Shown here: one piece after another, positions 4,569-30,253 of the stretch
Layout: every line of letters starts with the position of its first letter
Position numbering within the stretch: the stretch's first letter is position 1
Assembly: GCA_017933995.1 (NCBI GenBank)
Contig: JAGBKI010000030.1
Coordinates: forward strand, 1-37,884
DNA from: Bacteroidaceae bacterium
GTDB taxonomy: Bacteria > Bacteroidota > Bacteroidia > Bacteroidales > Bacteroidaceae
Length of the DNA: 37,884 bases
Reading direction: 5' to 3'
Notes under the pieces: generated by a model
Told to the model about the DNA's origin: nothing
Database searches by the model: none
The model's input: the letters and a program-made list of their open reading frames with translations, nothing else
Program-made: the position numbers and the translations under genes

Positions 4569-5030
4569 TTATTTGAGGGTGTTAATGTCGATGGCTTTCG
4601 GGCTCTGGGCTTCGTGGGGATGCTCTGCGCCTTCGTAGATATAGAGGTTGCGAAGGAGCTGCGCACCAAGCCGGTTCTTCGGCAGCATTCCCTTCACGAC
4701 GCGGCGGATGAGGCGGTCGGTGCCGTCCTTCTTGGCCAAAATCGTCGCGGGGGTGTTTTCGCGCTGGCCACCGGGGTAGCCGGTGTAGCTGTAGTAGATG
4801 CGGTCGGTCATCTTCTTGCCGGTAAGAATAAACTTCTCGGCGTTGATGATAATTACATTGTCGCCGCAATCAACGTGGGGCGTGAAATTTGGCTTGTACT
4901 TGCCGCGAAGCAGTTTTGCCACGCGTGTGCCAAGGCGTCCGAGCACTTGGTCCGTTGCGTCAACGACCACCCACTCTTTTGTGGCGGTTTCCTTATTGAC
5001 GGAAATGGTTTTGTAACTGAGTGTGTCCAC
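4569..5030 (-). CDS. rplM: 50S ribosomal protein L13 (uL13), GTG start
   Basis: A 153-residue L13 with the family blocks KEWVVVDATDQVLGRLGTRV, TPHVDCGDNVIIINAEKF, SYTGYPGGQRE and GMLPKNRLGAQLLRNLYIY. The start is a GTG at 5028-5030. It gives the N-terminus MDTLSYKTISVNKETATKEW, which matches the conserved start of Bacteroidales L13, and there is no in-frame ATG at that place. First gene of the L13-S9-S2-EF-Ts transcript, with a promoter and a 5' leader of about 130 nt. Confidence 0.97.
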   Translation of the reverse strand: MDTLSYKTISVNKETATKEWVVVDATDQVLGRLGTRVAKLLRGKYKPNFTPHVDCGDNVIIINAEKFILTGKKMTDRIYYSYTGYPGGQRENTPATILAKKDGTDRLIRRVVKGMLPKNRLGAQLLRNLYIYEGAEHPHEAQSPKAIDINTLK

Positions 5031-5200
5031 TGTTTTCTTTTGTGAAAAAGGGTTTGTTTTGTTTGTTATCTCCGCCGCGATTCCCGAACCACCTGTCCGG
5101 CCAAAGACAAAGGCTATTCACACGCGGCGCAGCGGCTTGGAGAGCCGCCTTGATAATAATCGGCGTGCAAAAGTACGAAAAAGGTTTCACTTGCAAAACT
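5031..5200 (-). promoter_or_regulatory. rplM promoter and structured 5' leader
   Basis: On the minus strand a -7 box TACTTTTG (5168-5175) lies 18 bp after a -33-like TTTTG element near 5195, matching the Bacteroidetes TAnnTTTG promoter. Transcription should start close to 5160, leaving about 130 nt of leader. Within it, near 5120-5142, is a GC-rich hairpin (GCGGCT with AGCCGC, 5-nt loop), followed by an A/C-rich unstructured stretch before the GTG. Ribosomal protein L13 leaders are known in other phyla. I cannot test a covariance model here, so a regulatory role is inference. Confidence 0.6.
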
Positions 5201-5295: not shown

Positions 5296-5505
5296 GCTAC
5301 GAGGGGCGGAAATCGCAAGCGGATGGGCGGAAATCGCGAGCGCGGTGCTTCAAAAAGTTTTTTGTACGGACTAAATCTGCAAATTAAGCCTTAGTTTCTA
5401 CAAATTAAGGCTTAGTTTGGCGAAATCAAGGCTTAGTTTGTACAAACTTAGGCTTAATTTGCAGAATTAGTCCGCTGCGAAGAGGATTTAGTCTGCTGCG
5501 AACGG
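5296..5505. repeat. Array of ten 21-bp palindromic units
   Basis: The 550-bp gap between the rplM promoter and the AraC gene holds a strictly 21-bp periodic array. Four adjacent 17-bp near-palindromes of consensus AAAYTAAGNCTTARTTT begin at 5381, 5402, 5423 and 5444. To the right two units share TTAGTC-GCTGCGAA (5467 and 5488). To the left two units share GGGCGGAAATCGC-AGCG (5304 and 5325). The whole is roughly mirror-symmetric: 5368-5397 and 5444-5473 are 30-bp inverted repeats with only two or three differences. There are no unique spacers and no coding sense. Confidence 0.9.
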
Positions 5506-5580
5506 AATTTCGGCCTTTCCTGTCGCGAAAGTGTGCGGACAAAAAAAGGGCGGGAACGAAGAAAAGGGGGAATGCAGCCG

Positions 5581-6456
5581 TCAGACGAGCTGGGCGGAGC
5601 GGCGGTAGGCGAGCGGGGTGAGGCCGGTGGCGCGGCGGAAGAACTTGCAGAAGACGCTGGGCGTGGGGAAGGCCATGGCGTAGGCCACGTCGGCGACGCT
5701 GAGGTCGCGCCGCGTGTGGAGCAGCAGCTTGGCGTGGAGCACGGCGGCGCGGTTCACCCAGTGCATCACGCTTTGGCCGCTGGCTGCCTTGACGACGGCG
5801 GAAAGGTAGTGGGGCGTGATGCAAAGGCGGTCGGCATAAAAACCGACGGTGCGCTCGCGGTCGGCGTGCTGTGTGGCCAGGCGGCGGAAGCGGTGGAACA
5901 GCGTTTCGGCGCGCGTGCCTCCCGCTGTTTCGGCTGTGGGCGCGGGGGCATCGAGGCTTTGCAGCGTGGCGACGAGGGCGCGCAACAGGTGGGCCACAGC
6001 AGCCCGGCGCAGCGGCTCGTGGCTGGCCAGTTCGTAGAGCAGGCGCGCCATGCGCAGGCAGAGTGCCCAGTCGGACGCGGCAGGGTGGAGGTACATCGAC
6101 GCGAGGCCGTCCACCTGTTCCTTGAAAGCCACGCCGACGACGTCGAAGTCGGGACTGAACGCGAGCGGCTCGATGATGTTGTCGGGCGGCTGCACCATCA
6201 CGTCGCCCGTCGCAAGGCTGTATTCCTGCATATTGACCACGCTGCGCGCTGTGCCGGCGGTGACGAAGATGATGCGCCATTCGCCGATGCGGTAGAGCGC
6301 GCCCGTGTCGACGAAACGCGCGCGCAGCGGACCGGGATGGAACACCACGGCCACGTCGGGGCGCACCAGGGCTTCGCCGCCCCAATCGGCGAGCGGCGAA
6401 AAGTCCGTCCGCTCGATGTCGAAGTCGTGAAGGGTTTTCGCAGTGGCTCTTTTCAT
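5581..6456 (-). CDS. AraC-family transcriptional regulator
   Basis: A DNA-binding regulator of 291 residues from the ATG at 6456. An in-frame upstream ATG at 6651 would run through the neighbour's promoter and coding start, so I reject it. The N-terminal half has a cupin-like sensor pattern (FVDTGALYRIGEWRI, ATGDVMVQPPDN). The C-terminal 100 residues carry the two AraC helix-turn-helix motifs (FYADRLCITPHYLSAVVK and VADVAYAMAFPTPSVFCKFF, then RRATGLTPLAYR). It is divergent from the TolC-like gene with 131 bp between, so it most likely controls the adjoining export cluster. The inducer cannot be read from the sequence. Confidence 0.92.
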   Translation of the reverse strand: MKRATAKTLHDFDIERTDFSPLADWGGEALVRPDVAVVFHPGPLRARFVDTGALYRIGEWRIIFVTAGTARSVVNMQEYSLATGDVMVQPPDNIIEPLAFSPDFDVVGVAFKEQVDGLASMYLHPAASDWALCLRMARLLYELASHEPLRRAAVAHLLRALVATLQSLDAPAPTAETAGGTRAETLFHRFRRLATQHADRERTVGFYADRLCITPHYLSAVVKAASGQSVMHWVNRAAVLHAKLLLHTRRDLSVADVAYAMAFPTPSVFCKFFRRATGLTPLAYRRSAQLV

Positions 6457-10923: not shown

Positions 10924-12069
10924 ATGAAACAGAAAAAGCAAGCCCACAGCCCCGTTCAGTTCCGCTCCTTCCTCGCCAAGGAGTTCCGGCACATGGCGCG
11001 CGACTGGCGCACGCTGCTCATCCTTGTGGCGATGCCCGTCATTATGGTGCTGCTCTTCGGCTACGCCGTCACCACCGAGGTGAAAGGCACGCGCACCGCC
11101 GTGCTCGACCCGTCGCACGACTACCTAACGCGGCGCATCACCGACGCGCTGGCCGCCAACACCCGCTTCGACCTCTCGGCCACCTGCGCCTCAATGGACG
11201 AGGTAGACGCCCTGTTCCGCGAGGGGCAAATCGACATGGCCGTGGTCTTCGCGCCCGACTTCGCCAGCCGCGTGACCACGGAGCGCGAGGCCGCCATCGA
11301 ACTGCTTGTGGACGGCAGCGAACCCAACCAGGCCGCCATACGCCAGGGCTACGCCATGCAGGTGGTGGCCTCCGTGGCTGCCCAGAGCGCACAGGCCGCA
11401 GCCAGTGCAGCGCAGACGGCACAGCCGCAAATCAACGTCGTGACCCGTATGCTCTACAACCCGCAGGGGCGCAGCGAGTTCAACTTCGTGCCCGCCGTCA
11501 TCGGCATGATACTCCTGCTGCTCTGCACGCTGATGACGAGCATCAGCATCGTGCGCGAAAAGGAGATGGGCACGATGGAGGTGCTGCTGGCCTCGCCCCT
11601 GCCGCCGTCGGTCATCGTGGCGGCCAAACTGGTGCCCTACTTCGTGGTGTCGGCGGTGAACCTGACCACCATTCTGCTGCTGTCGCGCTTCCTGCTCGGC
11701 GTACCGATAGCGGGCAGCCTCGCCGCGCTGGTAGGCGTCTCCTTAATCTATATATGCGTCGCGCTGGCGCTGGGACTGCTCATCTCCACGCTCGTCCGCA
11801 CGCAGCTCGCCGCCATGCTGCTGTCGCTGTTGCTCATCGTGCCGACGATGTACCTCAGCGGCATGGTGTTCCAGATTGACAGTATGCCCGTCCCGGCGCA
11901 ATACGCCTCCGCCCTCGTCCCCGCCCGCTGGTTTATGGACGCCGCCCGCCGCCTGATGATACAAGGCGTGGACGCCCGCCACATCCTTGGCGACGTCCTC
12001 GCCCTCTGCCTCCAGCTCCTCGTCCTCGCCACACTGGCCGTGAAGTGCTTTAAGACGAGGCTGGAATAA
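10924..12069 (+). CDS. ABC-2 type permease 1 (YbhS/YbhR-like)
   Basis: Inner-membrane permease, 381 residues. One membrane helix lies near residues 30-48 (LLILVAMPVIMVLLFGYAV). A large extracytoplasmic domain follows (about 50-190), then five C-terminal helices from about residue 195, the ABC-2 membrane domain. The IVREKEMGTMEVLLASPLPP motif between the second and third helices is diagnostic of ABC2_membrane_3. It works with the second permease at 12203 and the two ATPases upstream. Confidence 0.92.
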   Translation: MKQKKQAHSPVQFRSFLAKEFRHMARDWRTLLILVAMPVIMVLLFGYAVTTEVKGTRTAVLDPSHDYLTRRITDALAANTRFDLSATCASMDEVDALFREGQIDMAVVFAPDFASRVTTEREAAIELLVDGSEPNQAAIRQGYAMQVVASVAAQSAQAAASAAQTAQPQINVVTRMLYNPQGRSEFNFVPAVIGMILLLLCTLMTSISIVREKEMGTMEVLLASPLPPSVIVAAKLVPYFVVSAVNLTTILLLSRFLLGVPIAGSLAALVGVSLIYICVALALGLLISTLVRTQLAAMLLSLLLIVPTMYLSGMVFQIDSMPVPAQYASALVPARWFMDAARRLMIQGVDARHILGDVLALCLQLLVLATLAVKCFKTRLE

Positions 12070-12202
12070 ACATTAAACAATAAACATTAAACAATAACCA
12101 TAGCCCTACGGCATTGAATCGACGCACAGCCAACGTTTAATGTTTATTGTTCAACGTTTAATGTTTAACGGCCAACGTTTATAGTTTATTGTTTATTGTA
12201 CA
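12068..12202. repeat. AT-rich inverted repeat between the two permease genes
   Basis: The 133-bp spacer is built of ATTAAACAATAAAC-type repeats. A 16-17-bp perfect inverted repeat (12076-12092 with 12035 plus 100, i.e. 12135-12151) encloses a small hairpin GCC-CTAC-GGC at 12103-12112. More half-repeats of TTTAATGTTTA and GTTTATTGTTTATT follow up to the start codon. The layout, AT-rich inverted arms around a C(G)CCTACGG(C) mini-hairpin, resembles the elements at 7914 and 20238, although the arms differ in sequence. Confidence 0.75.
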
Positions 12203-17392: not shown

Positions 17393-19456
17393 CTAATTAC
17401 GCTCCAGCGCTTCCGCCGCCGCCTCCCAGGTTTCCATCGCCTCGGCGAGGGCTTGCGAAATTTCGGCGTGGCGGGTGAAGAGGTCGGGAGCGGGATTGGG
17501 ACGGGTCAGTGCGGCTTCGAGGTCGGAGAGTTCCTCTTCGAGGCGCGCCACCTCGGCCTCGGCCAGCTCCACGGCGCGTTCCTGTTTGCGACGCTCGCGC
17601 GCCTGCGCTTTCTGCTCGGCGTAGGAGAGGCGCGCGGCGGCTTTTCCGCCGTCACCGTCTGCAACTTGCGGCGACGGGAACGCGCCGGAGGAATTTCCCG
17701 TGGCCTTTGAGTTTGAAGTTGAGCCGTTTGATTTTGAAATTAAGCCGTTTAACTTTGAAGTTAAAGGCCACGCGTTCCGACCGTCGCCCGTCGGGGCTGT
17801 TGTGGTGGCCGTGGCGTCGGGGCGCAGGGCGTTCAACTGGTCCAGCGTCTCGATGTCCTTTTTTCGGAGGAAGTCGTAGATGCCGCCGATGTGCTCGCGC
17901 ACACGCCCGTCGCCGAACTCGTAGACGCGCTCCACGAGACCGTCGAGGAAGTCGCGGTCATGGCTCACGAGGATGACGGTGCCGTCGAAGGCGCGCACGG
18001 CCTCCTTGAGGACGTCCTTGGTGCGGAGGTCGAGGTGGTTGGTGGGTTCGTCGAGAATGAGCAGGTTGACGGGTTCGAGCAGCAGTTTGATCATAGCCAA
18101 CCGGCTGCGCTCGCCGCCGCTGAGCACCTTGACTTTCTTGTCGCTGGCCTCGCCACCGAACATAAAGGCGCCGAGGATGTCGCGCAGGCGCAGGCGCACC
18201 TCGCCCGTGGCCACGCGGTCGATGGTGTCGTAGACGGTCTGCTCGCCGTCAAGCAGCTGTGCCTGGTTTTGGGCGTAGTATCCGATGGCGACGTTGTGGC
18301 CTATCTTTAGTGTGCCGTCAAAGGGGATTTCGCCCATAATGCACTTCACGAGCGTGGTCTTGCCCTCGCCGTTGCGCCCCACGAAGGCCACTTTCTCGCC
18401 ACGGCGGATGGTGAGTGTGGCGTCGCTGAAAACGGTGTGCGCGCCGTAGCGTTTCGTCACGCCGTCGCAGATGACGGGGAAGTCGCCCGACCGCTGGCAC
18501 GGGGGAAACTTCAGGTTGAGCGCACTGTTGTCCACTTCGTCGACCTCGATGGGGACGATTTTGGCCAGTTGCTTGATGCGGCTCTGCACCTGCACGGCCT
18601 TGGTGGGCTTGTAGCGGAAACGCTCGATGAAGTCCTTGATGTCGGCAATCTCCTTCTGCTGGTTCTGGTAGGCGCGCAGTTGCTGCTCGCGGCGCTCGCG
18701 GCGCAGGCGGACGTACTCGTCGTATGGCACGCGGTAGTCCGTGAGGGTGCCGCACGAGATTTCGATGGTGCGGTTGGTGACGTTGTTGAGGAAGGCGCGG
18801 TCGTGGCTGACCAGCATCACGGCGGCGCGGCTGCGCGATAGGTACTGCTCCAGCCAGCGTATGCTCTCGATGTCGAGGTGGTTGGTGGGTTCGTCGAGCA
18901 GCAGCACGTCGGGCTTGCGCAACAGGAGTTTGGCCAGTTCGATGCGCATACGCCAGCCACCGGAGAGTTCGCCGGTGGGCCGCTGCAGTTCGTCCTGGCG
19001 GAAGCCGAGGCCGCGCAGGGTGCGCTCGGTCTCGGCGCGGAAGTTGTCGGCGCCAATGAGGGCCAGGCGCTCGCTCTCGGCGGTGAAGCGCTCCACGAGG
19101 TCGGCATAGGCGGGCGTGTCGTAGTCGGTGCGACCGGCCATCTCGTCGGCCATGGCGTCGACCTCGGCCTGGAGGGCGCGCACGTCGTCGAAGGCCGAGA
19201 GCGTCTCGTCGATGACGGAGCGCGTGTCGGTGGTCTGCATCACCTGTGGCAGGTAGCCCACACTGATGCCGCGCTGCGCGCCGACGCTGCCCGAGGTGGG
19301 CGACTGCTGGCCGGCCAGGATTTTGAGCAACGTACTCTTGCCGGCACCGTTCTTGCCGGTCAGGGCCACGCGCTCGCGGGCGTTGATGACGAACGAGGCG
19401 CCACGGAACAGCGGCGTGGCGCCGAAAGAGACGGATATGTCGTTGGCGGAAAGCAT
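17393..19456 (-). CDS. ABC-F family ATPase with repeat-derived linker
   Basis: A soluble ABC-F protein of 687 residues with two ATPase domains and no membrane domain; such proteins act on the ribosome. Domain 1 has GKNGAGKST (34-42) and LSGGWRMRIELAKLLL; domain 2 has GRNGEGKTT and LSGGERSRLAMIKLLL. The interdomain linker holds the basic ABC-F arm (RRERREQQLRAYQNQQKEI). A C-terminal coiled coil (about 600-687) is Uup/YdiF-like. The start is the ATG at 19456; a longer reading overlaps the upstream barrel gene. Residues about 562-586, Ser/Asn/Lys-rich, are encoded by a 21-bp repeat insertion (17700-17771). Confidence 0.93.
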   Translation of the reverse strand: MLSANDISVSFGATPLFRGASFVINARERVALTGKNGAGKSTLLKILAGQQSPTSGSVGAQRGISVGYLPQVMQTTDTRSVIDETLSAFDDVRALQAEVDAMADEMAGRTDYDTPAYADLVERFTAESERLALIGADNFRAETERTLRGLGFRQDELQRPTGELSGGWRMRIELAKLLLRKPDVLLLDEPTNHLDIESIRWLEQYLSRSRAAVMLVSHDRAFLNNVTNRTIEISCGTLTDYRVPYDEYVRLRRERREQQLRAYQNQQKEIADIKDFIERFRYKPTKAVQVQSRIKQLAKIVPIEVDEVDNSALNLKFPPCQRSGDFPVICDGVTKRYGAHTVFSDATLTIRRGEKVAFVGRNGEGKTTLVKCIMGEIPFDGTLKIGHNVAIGYYAQNQAQLLDGEQTVYDTIDRVATGEVRLRLRDILGAFMFGGEASDKKVKVLSGGERSRLAMIKLLLEPVNLLILDEPTNHLDLRTKDVLKEAVRAFDGTVILVSHDRDFLDGLVERVYEFGDGRVREHIGGIYDFLRKKDIETLDQLNALRPDATATTTAPTGDGRNAWPLTSKLNGLISKSNGSTSNSKATGNSSGAFPSPQVADGDGGKAAARLSYAEQKAQARERRKQERAVELAEAEVARLEEELSDLEAALTRPNPAPDLFTRHAEISQALAEAMETWEAAAEALERN
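17700..17771. repeat. 21-bp repeat insertion inside the ABC-F gene
   Basis: Three units starting TTTGAA at 17712, 17733 and 17754 repeat at exactly 21 bp; the second contains AAATTAAGCC, also found in the 5380 unit of the intergenic array. The block is bounded by a perfect 9-bp inverted repeat, GTGGCCTTT (17700-17708) and AAAGGCCAC (17763-17771). Because 21 bp is seven codons, the frame is kept. It is translated as a Ser/Lys/Asn/Gly heptad repeat between the second ATPase domain and the C-terminal coiled coil. Confidence 0.82.
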
Positions 19457-30006: not shown

Positions 30007-30131
30007 ACAAATCGAATAACCAACGAGTCCGATATTTTCTCCCCTGCCACCTCCTTCGTCTGCCGCGAAGCCAGGTTGATAGATTGACAGACAGCAGGAA
30101 AACCAAACGGGACATTCGCGACAGAAAAATC

Positions 30132-30235
30132 CGGTTTTCTTCGAAAACAAGCGGAGTGTCTTTGAAAAAAGGCGGAGTATCTTTGAAAACAGGCGGAGTA
30201 TCACTGAAAACCGACGGATGTGGCGCTTCAAAAGG
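30132..30235. repeat. 21-bp tandem array at the element border
   Basis: Units beginning CGG at 30152, 30173, 30194 and 30215 are spaced exactly 21 bp, with consensus CGGAGTATCTTTGAAAACAGG; a diverged unit begins near 30132. An open frame can be drawn through it in several frames simply because the period is a multiple of three, so I do not call a gene. The TTTGAAAAC core resembles the TTTGAA units in the ABC-F gene. Confidence 0.85.
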
Positions 30236-30253
30236 AGGGCTGCCAACAAAAAG

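What the first reader, a model, noticed from the sequence alone, without database searches (positions are those of the whole stretch)
5296..5505. Ten-unit array with an exact 21-bp period between the ribosomal operon and an AraC gene
Units start every 21 bp without drift over about 210 bp. Four central units are near-palindromes (AAAYTAAGNCTTARTTT) at 5381, 5402, 5423 and 5444, and the outer units differ from them but resemble their neighbours, with mirror symmetry overall. Two helical turns per unit would put all sites on one face of DNA, fitting a cooperative binding array, a nucleoid-protein site or a recombining selfish repeat. There are no spacers as in CRISPR. Period and symmetry are seen directly; function is inference.
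Basis: partly seen in the sequence, partly recalled or inferred. Interest (0 to 1): 0.8.

Follow-up and report, generated by a model that had tools for sequence, protein, structure and literature searches.

The report
Evenly spaced four-palindrome DNA arrays
The repeat beside the ribosomal operon is one of dozens of sites of the same build, each with four DNA palindromes two helical turns apart, that keep their distance from one another along this gut bacterium's chromosome, and some relatives show the same layout written in quite different letters.

Summary
The array is real, and it belongs to a genome-wide family. Period 21 bp; core of four palindromic units (5381-5464); weaker units in register over about 252 bp (5297-5548). 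The genome holds 290 such units at <=1 mismatch. Of 59 arrays read, 55 have exactly four core units. In 57 aligned arrays information falls symmetrically from about 30 bits per core unit to background at the fifth flank unit. None of the 59 lies inside a gene; they sit at operon boundaries without promoter or terminator polarity. In 35 listed intervals the smallest is 7.8 kb. Similar four-unit arrays in other letters occur in four other Bacteroidales genomes: G021 and G003 (21 bp), Candidatus Physcousia equi and an uncultured MAG (22 bp); unit number is looser in G003 and Physcousia. In G003, 0 of 96 intervals are under 7 kb (22 expected). 31 of 58 genus genomes show no match to the layout pattern. 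Best reading: cooperative protein-binding sites that organise the chromosome, whose letters change in concert between species. The protein is unknown. RAYT, hairpin and curvature explanations did not pass their tests. Ten narrow paper searches listed no description.

The parts
5381..5464 (.). Core: four 21-bp units, each a 17-bp odd-centred palindrome (consensus AAAYTAAGNCTTARTTT) plus 4 bp; linkers CTAC, GGCG, GTAC and end mark GCAG
   Evidence: Seen directly. Consensus from 57 arrays at 30-33 bits per unit. 55 of 59 arrays have exactly four units.
5297..5380 (.). Left flank: four units in the same 21-bp register, information fading outward; the innermost unit holds ACGGACT, one base off the family word GCGGACT
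   Evidence: 16.4, 9.6, 6.5 and 3.0 bits per unit for flank units -1 to -4 over 57 arrays (background about 1.1); sequence.
5465..5548 (.). Right flank: four units in register; the innermost holds AGTCCGC
   Evidence: 12.2, 8.9, 5.9 and 2.7 bits per unit for +1 to +4. Over 57 arrays, left and right first flank units match slightly more than shuffled (0.588 vs 0.532, P 0.0006).
5079..5148 (-). Neighbour, not part of the array: L13-Bacteroidia ribosomal leader RNA
   Evidence: Rfam RF03127, 57.1 bits, gathering score 38.
5581..6453 (-). Neighbour, not part of the array: AraC-type regulator gene; the array lies between it and the rplM operon, both on the minus strand
   Evidence: HTH_18 E 3.1e-18 and HTH_AraC E 2.5e-06.

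Best explanation
The array is a chromosomal binding site for a multimeric DNA-binding protein. Four dimers (or one tetrad of dimers) would sit on four palindromes spaced two helical turns apart, hence on one face of the DNA, and the complex would spread cooperatively over weaker units on each side. Some 80-100 such sites, mostly at least 7 kb apart and at operon boundaries, would act as chromosome-organising points: loop or domain anchors, or tethers. Their letters diverge between species while the layout stays, by co-change with the protein's specificity, helped by copying of cores between arrays. SHOWN: layout, copy number, usual number four, register, fading flanks, position between genes, spacing in the listed hits, recurrence in other letters, excess of near-identical cores. 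INFERRED: that a protein binds, that it is cooperative, and the organising role. The protein is not identified.
For: Units: 290 at <=1 mismatch in the own genome; unit plus half of the next, 247/255 at <=3 mismatches against 0/0 for the reversed control. Number four: 55 of 59 own arrays; 37 of 37 pairs of facing array ends in the list exactly 80 bp apart (my count by eye); 20 of 20 in G021 and 10 of 20 in G003; 17 of 20 in G059 and 10 of 20 in G058. Fading flanks over three to four units in own, G021 and G059. Gene context: of 59 own arrays 0 inside genes; 52 classifiable, 19 divergent, 19 tandem, 14 convergent, against 80 tandem, 14 divergent, 11 convergent among other pairs. Spacing: own 0 intervals under 7 kb against 9.2 expected (17 contigs, 50 arrays); G003 0 of 96 against 22 expected, CV 0.67 against 0.99; G058 0 of 12 under 7 kb against 3.4 expected, P 0.013. 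Halves facing each other across a linker are identical in only 4-7% against 22-24% expected. Core pairs at >=95% identity: 20 of 3192 against 1.95 expected.
Against: No binding protein was found or tested. Only 6 of 58 genus genomes, own included, show more than 20 matches to the layout pattern and 31 show none, so the system is patchy or written in letters that the pattern misses. Flanks beyond the first unit are at or near background in G003 and G058, and unit number is looser there (G003 2-5; G058 1-5). Position is not kept at rplM within the genus. Only 3 of 20 G021 arrays were seen beside the same genes as an own array, one of them at an unlike distance, with no chance rate worked out. 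In G003, arrays with at least two unit hits keep the minimum but have CV 1.15. G059 has one 6.6-kb interval, to a single weak unit. Spacing rests on truncated hit lists, and the 7-kb cut was set after seeing the G003 list. One own array overlaps a predicted gene start by about 50 bp (L069), and one of 20 G003 arrays lies inside a predicted gene.
Confidence: 0.53

Rival explanations
1. A non-autonomous mobile repeat with target immunity: the array moves as a unit and is barred from inserting near another copy, which makes the spacing.
For: L029 and L045 are inverted copies: 79 of 80 core bases equal and >=70% identity over a contiguous stretch of about 170 bp. L044 and L051 share part of core and right flank at 67-95% per unit, in a register shifted by one unit. 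A minimum distance of about 7 kb in two species is what immunity would give. Positions turn over between species.
Against: Two clear copied pairs among 58 arrays compared; other pairs in the top lists have flank identity of at most 0.57 (mean 0.40, sd 0.05). No Y1 (RAYT) transposase in G003 or in the 55%-complete G021, against 5 in own and 2 in G058; other transposase families were not searched. None of four exact two-unit patterns occurs in the viral contig collection.
Confidence: 0.19
2. Concerted evolution alone: old intergenic repeats homogenised by gene conversion, without function; fading flanks reflect conversion tract ends.
For: Excess of near-identical cores: 20 pairs at >=0.95 against 1.95 expected, some with unlike flanks, for example L067/window 0.96 core, 0.46 flank.
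Against: Does not explain the usual number four, the same layout at 22 bp in other letters, flank units in register with their own words, or the spacing.
Confidence: 0.1
3. A regulon operator: a transcription factor's sites at many promoters.
For: Palindromic, dimer-type sites; many arrays lie upstream of genes; the window array lies upstream of rplM.
Against: 14 of 52 own arrays lie between convergent genes, likewise 4 of 16 in G021 and 6 of 17 in G003. A regulon would not be expected to keep a minimum spacing (inference). The scan found no sigma-70-type match at the window array, but that scan does not cover other promoter types, so it says little here.
Confidence: 0.08
4. An RNA element or bidirectional terminator acting as a long hairpin.
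For: The window array folds as RNA at -89.4 kcal/mol, z -7.8. First flank units match across the axis slightly more than shuffled (P 0.0006).
Against: Core units 1/4 pair no better than shuffled (0.853 vs 0.852) and 2/3 pair worse (0.785 vs 0.842); flank units 2-4 show nothing (P 0.21-0.63); G059 flank units 1-3 show nothing (P 0.30-0.91). No terminator-like match. No single gene orientation is preferred.
Confidence: 0.04

Closest known systems
MatP/matS, Noc/NBS and SlmA-type dispersed chromosome sites (recalled, no call)
   Same: Tens of palindromic sites for one protein spread over the chromosome; a role in organising the nucleoid or division.
   Different: Those are single short sites (recalled). 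Here a site is usually a tetrad of palindromes in helical register with fading flanks, a kept minimum distance, and letters that change between species of one genus.
REP/BIME elements and RAYTs (recalled; RAYT tested)
   Same: Intergenic, palindromic, mosaic, species-specific, many copies.
   Different: No Y1 transposase found in two of four genomes; usual number four and 21/22-bp register; pairing between arms is not favoured.
BldC-type cooperative multimers on DNA direct repeats (PMC5859096; abstract and section list seen)
   Same: Cooperative oligomers on repeated sites: a model for the fading flanks.
   Different: BldC sites vary in length and binding is asymmetric, head to tail, on direct repeats (abstract). 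Here the units are palindromes and the core number is nearly fixed.
Iterons of plasmid origins (recalled)
   Same: Tandem protein sites about two helical turns apart.
   Different: Iterons mark one origin; here at least 78 arrays are listed in one genome.
Phased A-tracts and curved DNA (PMC3940949; passages seen)
   Same: Helical-period pattern of AA/TT.
   Different: AA/TT phasing is not above a period-keeping column permutation (P 0.34-0.78).

Membership tests
REP/BIME with RAYT | Y1-type (RAYT) transposase present in genomes carrying the element | tested here: not met
   PF01797: own 5, G058 2, G003 0, G021 0. G003 is 96% complete with 97 listed arrays; G021 is 55% complete, so its 0 weighs less.
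REP/BIME with RAYT | Hairpin arms kept by compensating changes | tested here: not met
   Core units 1/4 and 2/3 pair no better, or worse, than shuffled; the first flank unit is weakly better.
CRISPR array | Identical repeats separated by unique spacers of similar length | tested here: not met
   No spacers; units contiguous at 21 bp and mutually different.
VNTR or satellite array | Variable number of near-identical units | tested here: not met
   Four units in 55 of 59 (own), 20 of 20 (G021) and 17 of 20 (G059); looser in G003 (10 of 20) and G058 (10 of 20). Units differ within an array.
Nucleoid-organising site family (MatP/matS, Noc, SlmA type) | Many dispersed palindromic sites per chromosome with non-random distribution | tested here: met
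   78 own and 97 G003 arrays listed; no listed interval under 7 kb in either. G003 units are not palindromic at their centre.
Nucleoid-organising site family (MatP/matS, Noc, SlmA type) | Specific binding by a known protein of the family | not testable with these tools
   No protein identified; no binding data; these families were not searched for in the genomes.
Tn7/Mu-like element ends with target immunity | Transposase sites at the ends of an element that carries genes | not tested
   Transposase genes of this kind were not searched, and no second end was looked for.
Phased A-tract (curvature) element | AA/TT phasing at the helical period above that expected for composition and period | tested here: not met
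   Column-permutation P 0.41 (own, 57 arrays), 0.44 (G021, 20), 0.34 (G003, 20), 0.78 (G058, 3).

The most novel reading that the evidence does not exclude
Some Bacteroidales lineages carry an undescribed chromosome-organising system. It has about 100 tetrad sites per genome (four palindromes in 21- or 22-bp register, with cooperative shoulders), set roughly 20 kb apart, read by a fast-changing DNA-binding protein, so that each species rewrites all its sites in concert, much as eukaryotic centromeric DNA and its binding proteins diverge while the layout is kept.
Probability: 0.4. Interest if true: 0.93.

Novelty: categorically new. Interest (0 to 1): 0.85.

Why it matters
If true, a dominant gut order has a chromosome-organising system that none of my ten paper searches turned up. 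Sites with a tetrad layout, kept spacing and species-specific letters would give a direct handle: the binding protein can be fished with the array DNA and its role tested by contact mapping. The concerted change of about 100 sites between related species would also make a bacterial case of site and protein co-divergence testable. I call it categorically new because REP/BIME, CRISPR, VNTR and curved-DNA elements each failed a defining feature when tested, and the one kind whose tested feature was met (MatP/Noc/SlmA-type sites) has no known protein shown here and a different site build; that rating rests on open-access papers only.

Tried and rejected
Curvature: AA/TT phasing no better than a column-permutation null. 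RNA hairpin or terminator: stable fold but no general pairing preference across arrays and no terminator match. REP/RAYT: not found in G003 and G021. Phage-borne: 0 viral contigs for four exact two-unit patterns. Origin or terminus zoning in G003: dnaA lies at 1.082 Mb, GC skew of 40 sampled stretches is noisy, and 0-0.4 Mb holds few listed arrays; no zoning claimed. Conserved place at rplM: not within the genus; five other loci do have arrays upstream of rplM (L120, L128, L129, L148, L164), but L129 is a 7-bp repeat and I make no claim. Order-wide 21/22-bp excess: at a strict setting lags 22 and 21 lead (8 and 4; other lags at most 3), but at a looser one lags 18, 23 and 30 come close (22: 10, 21: 7, those three 6 each), so I do not claim it for the whole order. 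Papers: ten searches over open-access full text; two returned nothing, and the others listed at most 20 papers of which none, by its title and abstract start, describes these arrays. Of PMC3940949 I saw passages, of PMC5859096 the abstract and section list.

Dropped rows: L038 (2 units) and L044 (3 units) were left out of the 57-array alignment. One locus near a contig end in each set of 20 was left out of the profiles, not of the unit counts. In the own interval test only contigs of known length with at least two arrays were used (17 contigs, 50 of 78 arrays); 59 own arrays were read, the other 19 are known from pattern hits alone. The 12-kb cut for G058 (0 against 5.4 expected, P 5e-5) was picked after seeing the intervals, and some G058 sites counted there have only one or two units (L303, L310).

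Corrected on checking: the L029/L045 homology is about 170 bp, not 210; the L120 array lies upstream, not downstream, of rplM (my note has it otherwise); L044/L051 added as a second copied pair, and the mobile-repeat odds raised a little for it, the best explanation lowered a little.

Full report
What is there. The stretch 5296-5505 has a period of exactly 21 bp. Lag-21 identity is 0.545, against 0.254 (sd 0.032, maximum 0.39) in 20,000 shuffles. The middle is four units, each a 17-bp odd-centred palindrome plus 4 bp, at 5381-5401, 5402-5422, 5423-5443 and 5444-5464. It lies between an AraC-type gene (5581-6453, minus strand) and rplM (4569-5030, minus strand), whose L13-Bacteroidia leader is at 5079-5148. 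The genes after rplM look like rpsI, rpsB and tsf (named by eye from the ORFs).

One of many. The own genome (G000, 2.48 Mb in 66 contigs, 83.7% complete) holds 290 single units at <=1 mismatch, and 247 + 255 matches of unit-plus-half-unit at <=3 mismatches, with 0 for the reversed control. The array-end pattern gives 83 + 80 matches at <=1 mismatch, but its control gives 23 + 24. From the listed hits I count 78 distinct arrays and estimate 80-95. In the list 37 of 37 pairs of facing ends lie exactly 80 bp apart (my count by eye). I fetched 58 further loci, chosen from the list, and read them with the window. 55 of 59 arrays have exactly four units; the others have 2, 3, 5 and 6.

Anatomy. In 57 arrays aligned on the core, information per unit is 3.0, 6.5, 9.6 and 16.4 bits for left flank units -4 to -1, 30.8, 30.1, 30.1 and 33.4 for the core, and 12.2, 8.9, 5.9 and 2.7 for +1 to +4, over a background of about 1.1. 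Flank units use other words (GTGTGGGC, AGTCCGC, AAAGCCAC and the like, with complements on the other side; read). The core is a mosaic of a few half-words: AAATTAAG 194, AAACTAAG 127 and AAACTTAG 86 of 456. Halves facing each other across a linker are rarely the same (4-7% against 22-24% expected). A CGCC/GGCG linker occurs exactly once in 38 of 57 arrays, none in 11, two in 8 (binomial expectation 25, 18, 12).

Place and spacing. By a self-trained codon model, none of the 59 own arrays lies inside a gene; one (L069) overlaps a predicted start by about 50 bp. Of 52 classifiable, 19 lie between divergent, 19 between tandem and 14 between convergent genes, while other neighbouring pairs in the same loci are 80 tandem, 14 divergent and 11 convergent. 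In G021 the counts are 10 tandem, 2 divergent, 4 convergent (other pairs 58, 8, 2); in G003 9, 2, 6 (other pairs 45, 10, 3), with one G003 array inside a predicted gene. Of 35 intervals between listed own arrays the smallest is 7.8 kb; on 17 contigs of known length no interval is under 7 kb against 9.2 expected, reached in 0 of 20,000 simulations. The 7-kb cut was set after seeing the G003 list.

Relatives. The exact unit is rare in the genus: 10 of 58 genomes including own have any match, and only own (290) and G021 (40) have many. A layout pattern (TTTN4AAA every 21 bp, three times, <=1 mismatch) gives 177 matches in G003, 158 in own, 92 in G026, 41 in G021, 34 in G013, 27 in G007 and 0-11 elsewhere; 31 of 58 genomes have none, and control matches reach 47 in G022. 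G021:C19 has the contig length and rplM coordinates of the roe-deer rumen MAG RGIG5034 (L127), and G012 the rplM coordinates of Prevotellamassilia timonensis An873 (L129), so the window's genus appears to be the one with Prevotellamassilia (inference).

Same layout, other letters. G021: 20 of 20 arrays have four core units, with fading flanks and its own end marks. G003: unit AAACGTSGGAGATTTT, 97 + 114 matches, control 1 + 0; 10 of 20 arrays have four units, 5 three, 4 five and 1 two, and only the first flank units stand out. Its listed hits (14 of the reverse hits are cut off) make 97 arrays with no interval under 7.0 kb of 96 against 22 expected, CV 0.67 against 0.99; the 62 arrays with at least two hits keep the minimum but have CV 1.15. 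Candidatus Physcousia equi (G058): unit AGTTTCTGNNGCAGAAACT at 22 bp, 252 + 259 matches at <=2 mismatches, control 0; four units in 10 of 20, five in 7, and three, two and one in one each, with hardly any flank signal. On 13 contigs of known length 10 of 12 intervals are 17.8-24.3 kb (the others 12.3 and 82.9) and none is under 7 kb against 3.4 expected (P 0.013); six more intervals on other contigs run from 7.5 to 63 kb. Uncultured Bacteroidales SI.B26 bin 71 (G059): AACCCANAACTGTGGGTT at 22 bp, 86 + 83 matches, control 0, and 0 or 1 in five other genomes; four units in 17 of 20, with flanks of 5.7, 14, 19.6 and 23.2 bits on the left and 21.4, 21.9, 16.6 and 8.2 on the right. One of its three intervals that I worked out is 6.6 kb, to a single weak unit.

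How it spreads and changes. L029/L045 (inverted) share 79 of 80 core bases and a contiguous homology of about 170 bp; L044/L051 share part of core and right flank, one unit out of step. Over all, 20 of 3192 core comparisons reach 95% identity against 1.95 after block shuffling (0 of 300 shuffles reached it), so cores are copied or converted between arrays. Positions turn over: of 29 rplM loci of the genus 28 have no array at the 0.55 threshold in the 738-1497 bp held upstream, and one (L120) has another kind 0.85 kb upstream. 3 of 20 G021 arrays were seen beside the same genes as an own array (L216/L070, L209/L047 and, at an unlike distance, L220/L066).

Interpretation. The usual tetrad, helical register, fading shoulders, operon boundaries and kept spacing point to a nucleoprotein site with a chromosome-wide job. 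I put this at 0.53, with the protein and the job both inferred. A mobile repeat with target immunity is the strongest rival (0.19). RNA hairpin, curvature, RAYT and phage carriage were tested and not supported.

Limits. Hit lists were truncated at about 100 rows, several genomes are incomplete MAGs, the two 22-bp genomes were chosen because a 22-bp array showed in their fetched rplM neighbourhood, and most genus members were not shown to have the layout. The paper library is open-access only and the searches were narrow.

Noticed in passing
window 30111-30239: Another 21-bp array with a different unit (TCTTTGAAAACAGGCGGAGTA, about four copies) before a DUF6088/AbiEii toxin-antitoxin-like pair and a tyrosine integrase.
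   Followed up: no
window 17706-17764: AT-rich 21-bp repeat (TTTGACTTTGAAGTTAAGCCG) in frame inside a long ORF that looks, by eye, like an ABC-F ATPase, adding seven-residue repeats.
   Followed up: no
window 12065-12199: Heptamer repeats (TTTAATG/TTTATTG type) in opposite orientations between two genes that look, by eye, like ABC transporter permeases.
   Followed up: no
L022, L027, L028, L029, L041, L047, L050, L051, L053, L058, L067, L069, L076: A second dispersed palindrome, GACGCTGGAAGCGTC, 27 copies in 13 of 59 own loci; it may be the REP-like partner of the five Y1 transposase hits in this genome.
   Followed up: partly
L040 1489-1826: Long imperfect 21-bp array of about 16 units (CCATTCTCCCCCACTCCCACA type), unrelated in letters to the main family.
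   Followed up: no
L045 about 2050-2245: The outer flank words of one array recur as near-perfect 42-bp tandem repeats.
   Followed up: partly
L211 844-1113, L215 4125-4236, L222 3742-3870, L224 3802-3922 and 4148-4236, L235 3908-4164: Other 21-bp arrays with their own units close to main-family arrays in G021 and G003, as if 21-bp tandem arrays of arbitrary sequence arise often here.
   Followed up: partly
L120 2805-3026; L128 9538-9716; L148 9516-9642; L164 9577-9728; L129 2544-2817: Arrays of unlike letters upstream of rplM in five other genomes (L129 a TTGACC 7-bp repeat); perhaps this boundary is a favoured place.
   Followed up: partly
G022: 47 matches to the control register (AAAN4TTT every 21 bp), perhaps another array family with the opposite phase.
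   Followed up: no
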